A stretch of DNA of 64,000 bases. Source: Planctomycetaceae bacterium. Its GTDB lineage: Bacteria > Planctomycetota > Planctomycetia > Pirellulales > Lacipirellulaceae. The position numbers were made by a program, and so were the translations under genes. Shown piece by piece: positions 46,690 through 50,741 of the stretch. The stretch is from the NCBI GenBank assembly GCA_003233055.1, contig QIKP01000055.1, positions 16,722 through 80,721 on the forward strand, in the 5' to 3' direction. The notes beneath the pieces were generated by a model. The model was not told where the DNA came from and did not search any database. It worked only from the letters and a program-made list of their open reading frames with translations. Every line of letters starts with the position of its first letter. The stretch's first letter is position 1.

Positions 46690-46902
46690 CTACCGTCCAC
46701 CGATTGGGAGTGAGCGCACGCGAATCCTTCCAGTTGTTACCGAGACCACTGCGCCCGATTGCCGCTCGATGGCAAGATCCAGAATCTCTTGGTCAGAGGC
46801 TGTAGAACGGCCTAACTCGCCAACATGTTCGGCAAAGATACCGATGTCCCTCAGATACTGGACCGAGGATCGCGGAAGACCTTGGTCGAGTAACAGCTTC
46901 AT
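46690..46902 (-). CDS. DUF5615 PIN-like toxin homolog, apparently shortened
   Basis: MKLLLDQGLPRSSVQYLRDIGIFAEHVGELGRSTASDQEILDLAIERQSGAVVS; the expected TLDxDF segment is absent. Confidence 0.7.
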   Translation of the reverse strand: MKLLLDQGLPRSSVQYLRDIGIFAEHVGELGRSTASDQEILDLAIERQSGAVVSVTTGRIRVRSLPIGGR

Positions 46903-46908
46903 GTCGTA

Positions 46909-47133
46909 CTACTTGAGTTCCAAGACTCGATCTTCAAGATTCGCCGCAGCATATTCTAGCAACTGGCGAATATCCTCCTCTTCCAGTTCAGGATACTCTT
47001 CGGCCAGTTCACTACGGTCCGGATACGTAGCGAGCAATTCCAGCACTCGACGTACGGTTAGACGCATTCCCCGAACGCAAGGTTGCCCCCCCATGACGTT
47101 GGGATCCACAGTGATCCGGTCGAAAGAGATCAT
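46909..47133 (-). CDS. DUF433 antitoxin-like protein
   Basis: MISFDRITVDPNVMGGQPCVRGMRLTVRRVLELLATYPDRSELAEEYPELEEEDIRQLLEYAAANL. Confidence 0.9.
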   Translation of the reverse strand: MISFDRITVDPNVMGGQPCVRGMRLTVRRVLELLATYPDRSELAEEYPELEEEDIRQLLEYAAANLEDRVLELK

Positions 47134-47227: not shown

Positions 47228-47728
47228 CTACGGCTGGCCCAGCACCGACAACCGGCTGAGATGCCAATGGGTGACGGCAATCGCGAGGGCGTCGGCCACG
47301 TCGGGTGGGTCGGGTGGTTTGGTGAGTCCCAGTTCGCGCGTGATGGCTTGTTGCATCTGCGATTTGGGGGCACGACCATGGCCAGTGAGCGTTTTTTTGA
47401 TCTGCGTCGCCGCGTAGTGCTTGACTTGGAGACCGCCCAGTTGTCCGGCGAGGATGATCGCGCCGCGGGCATGGGCCATCAGGATGGCCGTCTTCGGGCG
47501 TTCGTAGTGCGAGTAAAGCTCTTCAACCGCCATCACCTGGGGAGAGTGGGCCTCGATTACCTCCGCCACACCTCGATAGATTTCCGCCACCCTCTCGGCA
47601 AGTGACTTGTTCGCCGACGTCCCCCCCCGGACGATACCCGCCTCGACGAGTTTCGCCTGCCCGGTCGCCGTGTCGAGCACGCCGTAGCCGGTAATGTTGA
47701 GTCCAGGATCAATGCCAAGGATACGCAT
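47228..47728 (-). CDS. ruvC: crossover junction endodeoxyribonuclease RuvC
   Basis: MRILGIDPGLNITGYGVLDTATGQAKLVEAGIVRGG...MAVEELYSHYERPKTAILMAHARGAIILA...KSQMQQAITRELGL. Confidence 0.96.
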   Translation of the reverse strand: MRILGIDPGLNITGYGVLDTATGQAKLVEAGIVRGGTSANKSLAERVAEIYRGVAEVIEAHSPQVMAVEELYSHYERPKTAILMAHARGAIILAGQLGGLQVKHYAATQIKKTLTGHGRAPKSQMQQAITRELGLTKPPDPPDVADALAIAVTHWHLSRLSVLGQP

Positions 47729-47828
47729 GGTGAAAAAGCGGAAAGCGGAAAGCGGAAAGCGGAGGTGTCGCTGGCGGGCTTGCCTCCACGGTGGGCCTAT
47801 CAAAGTAGTTTCTTGAATGCTTCAACCG

Positions 47829-48029
47829 TTAGTCCGGCGTCACGGGTAGTCCGGCGTCACGGGCTATGCCACCCATTGTGAATGCGTTAATGGGATCATG
47901 TCTCGGAATCGTAAGGACGCGATTGCCATCGGACATCACCGTGTGCTTGCCTTCGCGAACGACAGCAAAGCCGATTTTTTCAAGCGATTTGATTGCCCGC
48001 TTGTGGTGGACGCCTTGAATCTTGGGCAC
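47829..48029 (-). CDS. hicA: HicA-family toxin with frameshifted C-terminus
   Basis: HKRAIKSLEKIGFAVVREGKHTVMSDGNRVLTIPRHDPINAFTMGGIARDAGL then PVTPD-stop caused by a 17-bp duplication. Confidence 0.85.
   Translation of the reverse strand: MPKIQGVHHKRAIKSLEKIGFAVVREGKHTVMSDGNRVLTIPRHDPINAFTMGGIARDAGLPVTPD
47830..47863. repeat. 17-bp exact tandem duplication in hicA 3' end
   Basis: tagtccggcgtcacggg tagtccggcgtcacggg. Confidence 0.97.
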
Positions 48030-48032
48030 AAG

Positions 48033-48233
48033 TTACGCCTCAACTTCAACTTCATGAACTTCCTGTTCTTTACTGAGCATATCCACAGCTTCGAGGTACT
48101 CACGAATGGCATCCTTTACGTTATCGAGCGCTTCCTGCTCATTGATGCCTTGAGAGTGGCAGCCTGGCAGCCCGAGGACCGACGCGGCGACTCCCTCTTC
48201 CGAATGTTGGAGAACAATTCGATAACGCATCAT
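48033..48233 (-). CDS. hicB: HicB-family antitoxin
   Basis: MMRYRIVLQHSEEGVAASVLGLPGCHSQGINEQEALDNVKDAIREYLEAV. Confidence 0.9.
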   Translation of the reverse strand: MMRYRIVLQHSEEGVAASVLGLPGCHSQGINEQEALDNVKDAIREYLEAVDMLSKEQEVHEVEVEA

Positions 48234-48266: not shown

Positions 48267-50033
48267 CTACCCCATTATACTCCACTCGGTCCCGCCGGCA
48301 CGGTCTTCGAGAGTTACGCCGATCGCTTGGAGCCGGTCGCGGACGGCGTCGCTGGTGGCGAAGTCTTTGCCCTCGCGGGCCGTTTGGCGAAGGTCGATCA
48401 ACATCTTGATGACCACGTCGAGCGCGTTTTCGTCGCCGCCGGTCCATTCGGTCCCCCCTGCGCGGTCTTCCAAGACAATGCCGGTCGGGGCGAGCCCGTC
48501 GCGCACGGCGTCGGCGGTCGCGAAGTTCTTGGTGGCTCGGGCTTCGGCGCGGAGGTCGATCACCAGTTGCATGACTTGGCCCAGTAGCTCGCCACCCCCT
48601 GCTTCGGCGGGGGCCTGCTGAAAAATCCCAAGGGTGCTTGATAGCTCCTTGAGTGCCTGGACCCCCCGGACAAACGGCTCGACTTTTTCCGATAGCTGGC
48701 CAGGCATTTCGCCCGTCACTTCGAGCTGGGCGTCGTCGCAATATTTGTTGAGTGTGCGGACGAGTTCGAAGAGCTCGCCAATCGCCCCGCCCGTGTTGAA
48801 ATCGTCATCCATCACGGTGAGGAATTTTTTCCGCAGTTGGGCAACCTGGGCAAGCAGGTCGGCTGCTCCCGGCTCCATTTCGCCCCCCTCGCGAGTGGCC
48901 GGCGCGTCGAGTTCGTAGAAACTGCTGCCGGTAACTCGCTCGTACCGCTTGAAAAACCGGTAGAAGGTTTCCAAGCCGATCGCGGCCTCTTCGATGGCTG
49001 GTTCGCTGAAGAGGACCGTGCTGCGGTAATGGGTACGGAGGAGGAAGAAGCGGATGCGTTCGCCCCCTTGGGCGGCGATCAGGTCCCCAAGGCCGCCGGC
49101 ACCGGCGGAGCGGGACATCTTGCCCGAATCCTCCGTGACGGAATCCCCCGCCGCTGAAGCGGCGTCACCACGGCCTCCGATTTTTCCGGCGGCGGCATCT
49201 TTGCGCAGGAGGCCGTTGTGGGCCCAGTACTTGACCATCGGCTTGGCATGGCAGCATTCGCTTTGGGCGATTTCGTTTTCGTGGTGCGGGAAGACCAGAT
49301 CGAGCCCGCCACCATGAATGTCGAAGGTCTCGCCCAAAATTTTCTTCGCCATGGCCGAGCACTCGATGTGCCAACCAGGACGACCGTTACCCCAAGGGCT
49401 CTCCCAACTCGGCTCGTCTGGCTTGGCAGATTTCCAAAGTGCAAAGTCGGCCGCACTTTTCTTCCGCTCCACCATGCCCCCCCCTTCGCCCTGCATCGCC
49501 TCGACGGTTCGGTTCGAGAGCTTGCCATACTCGCGATCCTTGCCGACATCAAAGTAGACATCGCCTTCCGACGCGTACGCAAAGCCTTGCTCGACGAGCG
49601 ACTCAACAAGACGGATGATCTCTCCCATGCACTCGGTCGCGCGGGGGAAGTGATCGATTTGGTCGACGCCGAGTGCCGCAAGATTCTGCTTGTAGTCGGC
49701 AATGTTCTCCTCGGCGACTTCGAGCATGGTCATGCCACGCTCGTTGGCTTTCTGGATCAGCTTGTCGTCGACGTCGGTGATGTTGACGACCCAATTCACC
49801 TCGTACGCGTTGTACGTGAGGTAACGCTTGATGCAATCGAAAATCACCGGCCCGACCATGTGGCCAATGTGCGCCTCGGCATAGACGGTCGGCCCGCAGA
49901 GATAGATGCCGACTTTGCCCGGCAAGACCGTCTCGAAAGGCGACTTCTTTTTGGTGAGCGTGTTGTAAATCCGCAGCGTTGGATGGGCGGCAGCGGTAGC
50001 GGTGGTGGGATTCGTCGCGGTGGAAGTCGGCAT
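48267..50033 (-). CDS. cysS: cysteinyl-tRNA synthetase
   Basis: GIYLCGPTVYAEAHIGHMVGPVIFDCIKRYL...GRPGWHIECSAMAKKILGETFDIHGGGLDLVFPHHENEIAQSECCH...KMSRS. Confidence 0.97.
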   Translation of the reverse strand: MPTSTATNPTTATAAAHPTLRIYNTLTKKKSPFETVLPGKVGIYLCGPTVYAEAHIGHMVGPVIFDCIKRYLTYNAYEVNWVVNITDVDDKLIQKANERGMTMLEVAEENIADYKQNLAALGVDQIDHFPRATECMGEIIRLVESLVEQGFAYASEGDVYFDVGKDREYGKLSNRTVEAMQGEGGGMVERKKSAADFALWKSAKPDEPSWESPWGNGRPGWHIECSAMAKKILGETFDIHGGGLDLVFPHHENEIAQSECCHAKPMVKYWAHNGLLRKDAAAGKIGGRGDAASAAGDSVTEDSGKMSRSAGAGGLGDLIAAQGGERIRFFLLRTHYRSTVLFSEPAIEEAAIGLETFYRFFKRYERVTGSSFYELDAPATREGGEMEPGAADLLAQVAQLRKKFLTVMDDDFNTGGAIGELFELVRTLNKYCDDAQLEVTGEMPGQLSEKVEPFVRGVQALKELSSTLGIFQQAPAEAGGGELLGQVMQLVIDLRAEARATKNFATADAVRDGLAPTGIVLEDRAGGTEWTGGDENALDVVIKMLIDLRQTAREGKDFATSDAVRDRLQAIGVTLEDRAGGTEWSIMG

Positions 50034-50249
50034 GGTGTTCGGTTTTGCTAAAGAGTGCTTGTTTGCAAACGAAAGAGTTCTGGAAATAGCCGACGAGCTA
50101 CGCCTCGTCAGAACGCCCCCTCGGCGCCCCTTTCGGACCGACGAGACGCAGCTCGTCGATGAGAGGGGAGCGTCCTACAGGTTAGAGTCTCGGGGCCGTT
50201 CGTGAAAAGGGCGAAAAAGCGGGGCGATGGCGGCCAGGGACGGCCCGGC

Positions 50250-50741
50250 TCACTTCGAGAGCTTTTCTACAAGGACGATTGCAGTCGCTTCGATGGCTTC
50301 CTCGCGACCGACGGGGCCGACCCCCTCGCCTGTTTTCGCCTTGAGGCCAATGTCGAAGGGGTTGGCACCGAGAATGCCGGCCATCCGGTGGCGGATCGCC
50401 TCCTTGTAAGGACTCAGCTTGGGGCGTTCCGCCGCGATCACGCAATCAAGGTTCACGAGCTGGTAGCCGGCGGCGCGGACTTTTTCGTAGGCAAGCCGGA
50501 GGAGTTCGGCCGAATCACGGTCGCGGTTTTCTTCGCGAGTGTTAGGAAAAAGCTCGCCAATGTCGGGCAGTCCGACCGCGCCGAGCAATGCGTCGATGAC
50601 GGCGTGGAGCAGGACGTCGGCATCGCTGTGGCCTACCAGCTGCCGATCGTGCGGCACCTGGACGCCACCGATCACCAGTGGCCCTCCCGGCTCGGTGCGG
50701 TGGGTGTCGGTGCCGAGGCCAATGCGGAAGTGGGTGGACAT
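50250..50741 (-). CDS. ispF: 2-C-methyl-D-erythritol 2,4-cyclodiphosphate synthase
   Basis: MSTHFRIGLGTDTHRTEPGGPLVIGGVQVPHDRQLVGHSDADVLLHAVIDALLGAVGLPDIGELFP. Confidence 0.97.
   Translation of the reverse strand: MSTHFRIGLGTDTHRTEPGGPLVIGGVQVPHDRQLVGHSDADVLLHAVIDALLGAVGLPDIGELFPNTREENRDRDSAELLRLAYEKVRAAGYQLVNLDCVIAAERPKLSPYKEAIRHRMAGILGANPFDIGLKAKTGEGVGPVGREEAIEATAIVLVEKLSK

What the first reader, a model, noticed from the sequence alone, without database searches (positions are those of the whole stretch)
47829..48233. A 17-bp tandem duplication frameshifts the HicA toxin C-terminus; one copy fewer restores a canonical tail
In the hicA 3' end the sequence tagtccggcgtcacggg occurs twice back-to-back (47830-47846 and 47847-47863). 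As it stands the ORF reads ...GIARDAGLPVTPD-stop. Deleting one 17-bp copy gives ...GIARDAGLTVEAFKKLL-stop (stop at 47800-47802), which matches the usual HicA C-terminal helix. Because 17 is not a multiple of 3, the duplication shifts frame. The allele may be a recent inactivation, or a reversible switch that toggles by slippage or recombination between the two copies. The hicB ORF is intact.
Basis: partly seen in the sequence, partly recalled or inferred. Interest (0 to 1): 0.72.

Follow-up and report, generated by a model that had tools for sequence, protein, structure and literature searches.

The report
HicA toxin tail lost to duplication
In one environmental planctomycete genome, a 17-letter stretch copied twice in a row has knocked the end of a bacterial self-toxin gene (hicA) out of frame and replaced its last nine, normally conserved, amino acids; it is most likely an ordinary gene-damaging mutation rather than an evolved switch.

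Summary
TAGTCCGGCGTCACGGG occurs as two identical back-to-back copies (47830-47846, 47847-47863) inside the 3' end of hicA (minus strand, GTG start 48029, TAA 47831-47829), in a hicBA operon between cysS and ruvC of a 2.78-Mb planctomycete draft genome. The present protein ends DAGLPVTPD. The neighbouring frame still encodes RDAGLTVEAFKKLL and a stop at 47802-47800. The duplication is therefore a derived frameshift. AlphaFold2 gives an intact homologue a confident third helix (63-69) that the window protein lacks. Inactivation is not shown: the catalytic His and whole Pfam domain remain, and HicA toxins of S. pneumoniae, B. pseudomallei and E. coli with solved structures stop at this point. 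A reversible switch is possible in principle (pneumococcal capsule precedent) but nothing here supports it; no single-copy allele was found. Other hicA genes of this subfamily carry unrelated lesions beside an intact hicB, which points to ordinary toxin decay. Best reading: loss or attenuation of a Class 2 HicA toxin by a short tandem duplication.

The parts
48033..48233 (-). hicB, small antitoxin (66 aa, no DNA-binding domain found), intact
   Evidence: ORF list; PF15919 sub-threshold 24.5 bits; full-length alignment with relatives' HicB, 65-68% identity
47829..48029 (-). hicA as it stands: 66 aa, GTG start, ends DAGLPVTPD, TAA 47831-47829
   Evidence: PF07927 34 bits, profile 2-58 of 58; own-genome family search
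47847..47863 (.). 17-bp repeat copy (5' copy in the hicA direction), TAGTCCGGCGTCACGGG on + strand
47830..47846 (.). 17-bp repeat copy (3' copy in the hicA direction), identical
47800..47829 (-). displaced tail codons TVEAFKKLL (47829-47803) with stop TGA (47802-47800), out of frame in the present allele
   Evidence: same nine-residue tail as in homologues
48267..50033 (-). cysS, upstream neighbour; order cysS-hicB-hicA-ruvC shared with five other genomes of the family
47228..47731 (-). ruvC, downstream neighbour
   Evidence: PF02075 142.6 bits

Best explanation
A single 17-bp tandem duplication arose in a formerly normal, 70-residue, tailed HicA toxin gene of a small hicBA (Class 2) operon lodged between cysS and ruvC. 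Because 17 is not a multiple of 3, it replaced the last nine residues (TVEAFKKLL, a conserved third helix with an invariant Phe) with PVTPD. The most likely consequence is loss or attenuation of the toxin with the antitoxin left intact: ordinary toxin decay, not an evolved switch. Shown: the duplication, the frame change, the derived state, and the loss of a conserved, predicted helix. Inferred: loss or attenuation of activity, and that the change is recent (the two copies are identical and the displaced tail is undamaged).
For: Nine close homologues of the same order (57-73% identity) end AGL + 9 residues. Of 80 genome-contig loci from many phyla (60-75% identity), 79 end in the same short tail of 9-10 residues with Phe at position 5; seven of them have a variant of AGL such as ANL, AGF or AGM. 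Across 87 intact homologues the Phe is 87/87, and none has the window's Pro at position 62. The displaced frame carries exactly that tail, undamaged, with its stop, identical to the tail of L066. AlphaFold2: the intact homologue has helix 63-69 at pLDDT about 95; the window protein has no such helix and tail pLDDT 65. Unrelated hicA lesions beside intact hicB recur: internal deletion in G028 (L145), nonsense codon in L126, frame slip near the start in G042. In a 464-kb sample of this genome this is the only exact tandem duplication with a unit of 14 bp or more, not divisible by 3, that lies inside a recognisable conserved gene. The window HicA sits on a long branch (0.7 against a median of 0.17), consistent with relaxed constraint.
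Against: Apart from S15, the window protein keeps every body residue (1-61) that is 90% or more conserved, including the invariant His29, and the full Pfam domain, so catalysis may survive. HicA chains of S. pneumoniae (5yrz), B. pseudomallei (4c26, 6g26) and E. coli (6hpb) end at or just after the equivalent of AGL, so a tail is not needed in every HicA. Whether tail loss affects stability, RNA cleavage or HicB binding in this subfamily was not testable here.
Confidence: 0.62

Rival explanations
1. The shortened HicA is still an active toxin: the change only converts a tailed HicA into the tail-less architecture natural in S. pneumoniae and E. coli HicA, and the operon remains a working toxin-antitoxin module.
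For: Catalytic His and all of PF07927 (2-58 of 58) are retained. Foldseek's best solved match for the window model is the S. pneumoniae HicA 5yrz_B, whereas the tailed homologue matches tailed 1whz best. Several solved HicA chains stop at AGL. Distant HicAs in the same bacterial family end soon after the second helix, e.g. ICRQLGVPEP. hicB is intact.
Against: In this subfamily the tail is nearly invariant (Phe 87/87) and predicted as a confident helix. Tail-less HicAs are distant (about 21-33% identity) and may compensate elsewhere.
Confidence: 0.25
2. A reversible ON/OFF switch: slippage or recombination between the two direct copies toggles HicA between tailed and tail-less forms.
For: Perfect adjacent direct repeats are inherently revertible (general knowledge). 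There is precedent in pneumococcal capsule genes, where spontaneous sequence duplications within an ORF cause phase variation (Waite 2001 and 2003, known here only through the text and reference list of PMC4022640).
Against: Only two copies, one genome, and no single-copy allele found: congeners lack hicBA at this site, and the displaced-tail sequence has no match in viral contigs. No homologue carries a repeat at this position. Unrelated lesions elsewhere in hicA look like decay.
Confidence: 0.06
3. Assembly or minor-strain artefact: the true majority allele has one copy.
For: The genome is a draft of 79 contigs; reads were not available.
Against: A 34-bp array is short enough for ordinary short reads, and junction k-mers must have existed in reads for an assembler to emit it (inference). 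The 464-kb sample shows no flood of such duplications.
Confidence: 0.07

Closest known systems
Class 2 hicBA modules (classification of PMC10865869)
   Same: Order hicB then hicA, small HicB (66 aa) with no recognisable DNA-binding domain, small HicA, genes 3 bp apart
   Different: HicA's last nine residues are replaced by a frameshift
Thermus thermophilus hypothetical protein 1WHZ (tailed HicA-like)
   Same: Fold and C-terminal ...RDAGLTEEEF tail as in intact homologues of the window gene
   Different: The window protein lacks that tail
S. pneumoniae HicA (5YRZ)
   Same: Best structural match of the window protein; also ends at AGL
   Different: Tail-less, distant in sequence, paired with a HicB that has an RHH domain (PMC10865869)
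Spontaneous tandem duplications in pneumococcal capsule genes (Waite 2001, 2003; cited in PMC4022640)
   Same: Short duplication inside an ORF that disrupts the gene and can in principle be excised precisely
   Different: There, phase variation was reported; here there is only one static allele

Membership tests
HicA toxin (PF07927) | Match to the family profile over its length | tested here: met
   34 bits against cut-off 27, positions 2-58 of 58
HicA toxin (PF07927) | Conserved histidine in the GxH motif | tested here: met
   His29 invariant in the alignment and present in the window
[quoted passage not shown]
   H9-18 E22-26 E29-33 E38-42 H49-58; Foldseek to solved HicAs
HicA toxin (PF07927) | RNA cleavage and toxicity | not testable with these tools
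   needs expression
Tailed HicA subfamily (70 aa, ...DAGL[TS]xEEFRKLL) | Nine-residue C-terminal helix with invariant Phe | tested here: not met
   absent from the present ORF, present only in another frame
Class 2 hicBA | hicB upstream of hicA, small HicB without DNA-binding domain | tested here: met
Phase-variable contingency locus | Both repeat states observed in one lineage or population | tested here: inconclusive
   only the two-copy state seen; no conspecific genome or reads available

The most novel reading that the evidence does not exclude
The 17-bp direct repeat toggles a toxin-antitoxin toxin between a tailed and a tail-less form, giving a heritable, reversible change of toxin strength in part of the population.
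Probability: 0.05. Interest if true: 0.7.

Novelty: new member of a known kind. Interest (0 to 1): 0.28.

Why it matters
It is a clean example of how toxin-antitoxin operons may decay: the toxin is hit while the antitoxin stays. It also exposes a nearly invariant C-terminal helix in a large HicA subfamily that lies outside the Pfam model and, per PMC10865869, belongs to a class (small hicBA) that had not been tested experimentally. The natural tail-loss allele makes a ready question about what that helix does.

Tried and rejected
Ribosomal frameshift rescue: reaching the displaced tail would need a -1 shift around CTA CCC GTG; no slippery heptamer is there (by inspection), so rejected. Genome-wide toxin erosion: ParE-family matches and two of three DUF5615 matches in this genome have no internal stops and near-normal length, so a general collapse of toxins is not supported, although the two other HicA-like genes look irregular. 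Simple vertical inheritance of a family-wide cysS-ruvC hicBA: the 70-column tree does not group the window HicA with the four neighbours at the same site, but it is poorly resolved and the window row is a long branch. NCBIfam gave no HicA or HicB match. Literature searches for frameshifted hicA gave nothing directly on point.

Full report
Observation. The window's hicA lies on the minus strand, GTG at 48029, TAA at 47831-47829. Inside its 3' end TAGTCCGGCGTCACGGG occurs twice, identically and back to back, at 47830-47846 and 47847-47863. No third match with up to three mismatches exists in the window. The frame in use reads RDAGLPVTPD-stop; another frame over the same DNA reads RDAGLTVEAFKKLL-stop with TGA at 47802-47800.

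Context. The window lies in a 2.78-Mb, 79-contig genome. The lineage is planctomycete: a member of the same bacterial family (G007) has a HicA identical to that of a named Planctomycetota genome (L077). The order is cysS - hicB - hicA - ruvC - DUF433/DUF5615 - ruvA. Five other genomes of the family carry hicBA at the same place between cysS and ruvC (G006, G008, G019, G022, G042), whereas the three held congeners show no hicA match and no hicBA remnant there. HicB is 66 aa with no DNA-binding domain found, and the gene order is hicBA, so the module fits Class 2 of the HicA classification in PMC10865869, a class whose toxins and antitoxins that paper describes as not yet analysed experimentally.

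Ancestral state. Nine homologues with 57-73% identity from the same order end exactly nine residues after AGL. One scan of GTDB genomes gave 80 loci with 60-75% identity from many phyla: 79 end in the same short tail of nine or ten residues (a few with ANL, AGF, AGM or AGI in place of AGL), and the 80th (L126) has a nonsense codon in mid-gene. Across 87 intact homologues the Phe at tail position 5 is invariant, the penultimate Leu is 92%, and none has the window's Pro at position 62. The nine residues in the displaced frame are identical to the tail of L066. The duplication is therefore derived. The identity of the two copies and the undamaged displaced tail suggest it is not old, though it cannot be dated.

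Structure. AlphaFold2 on an intact homologue (L066) gives the HicA fold plus a helix 63-69 at about 95 pLDDT. The window protein has the same core, but its tail is unstructured at 65 pLDDT. Foldseek pairs the tailed form with T. thermophilus 1whz over 68 columns and the window form with S. pneumoniae HicA 5yrz_B. By sequence, solved HicA chains of S. pneumoniae, B. pseudomallei and E. coli end at or just after the equivalent of AGL. Nature thus has tailed and tail-less HicAs, and the duplication has turned one into roughly the shape of the other. The body of the window protein keeps all residues that are 90% or more conserved except at position 15, including His29, and the whole Pfam domain. 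Inactivation is plausible but not shown.

Mechanism and rivals. Damage to hicA beside an intact hicB recurs in relatives by unrelated routes: an internal deletion in G028 (L145), a nonsense codon in L126, and a frame slip near the start in G042, which could be a homopolymer sequencing error in a one-contig genome. This favours ordinary toxin decay. In 464 kb of this genome, this is the only frame-breaking exact tandem pair with a unit of 14 bp or more inside a recognisable conserved gene; the exact pairs inside ORFs with units of 12 bp or more are mostly multiples of three. Short duplications inside ORFs can revert and cause phase variation, as reported for pneumococcal capsule genes (Waite 2001, 2003, cited in PMC4022640), so a switch is physically possible. 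But only one state has been seen, with two copies, in one genome. An assembly artefact is unlikely because the 34-bp array is easily spanned by reads, but no reads were available.

Verdict. Real, correctly described, derived, and probably attenuating. It is an ordinary kind of mutation, with a modest bonus: a nearly invariant HicA tail helix outside the Pfam model, and a natural allele that lacks it.

Noticed in passing
46690-47133, minus strand: A DUF433/DUF5615 pair next to ruvA: the DUF433 gene is whole, but the DUF5615 gene (70 aa) lacks about 53 internal residues, in frame, that congeners keep. This is a second damaged toxin-like gene beside an intact partner in the same cysS-ruvA interval.
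   Followed up: partly
47735-47763: AAAGCGG repeated 4.1 times directly upstream of the ruvC ATG. This array is the only one in the genome, but the same roughly 29 bp match at 87-100% in several other genomes of the order, often in many copies.
   Followed up: partly
L003 (G000:C10, about 49963-50335) and L002 (G000:C14): The two other HicA-like genes of this genome also look irregular: one lacks a recognisable N-terminal part of both hicB and hicA, the other runs on past the usual end.
   Followed up: partly
L145 (G028), L126, L144 (G042): Independent hicA lesions next to intact hicB: internal deletion, nonsense codon, frame slip near the start.
   Followed up: partly
whole genome G000: At 2.78 Mb (90% complete) it is much smaller than its three held congeners (4.6-7.8 Mb).
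   Followed up: no
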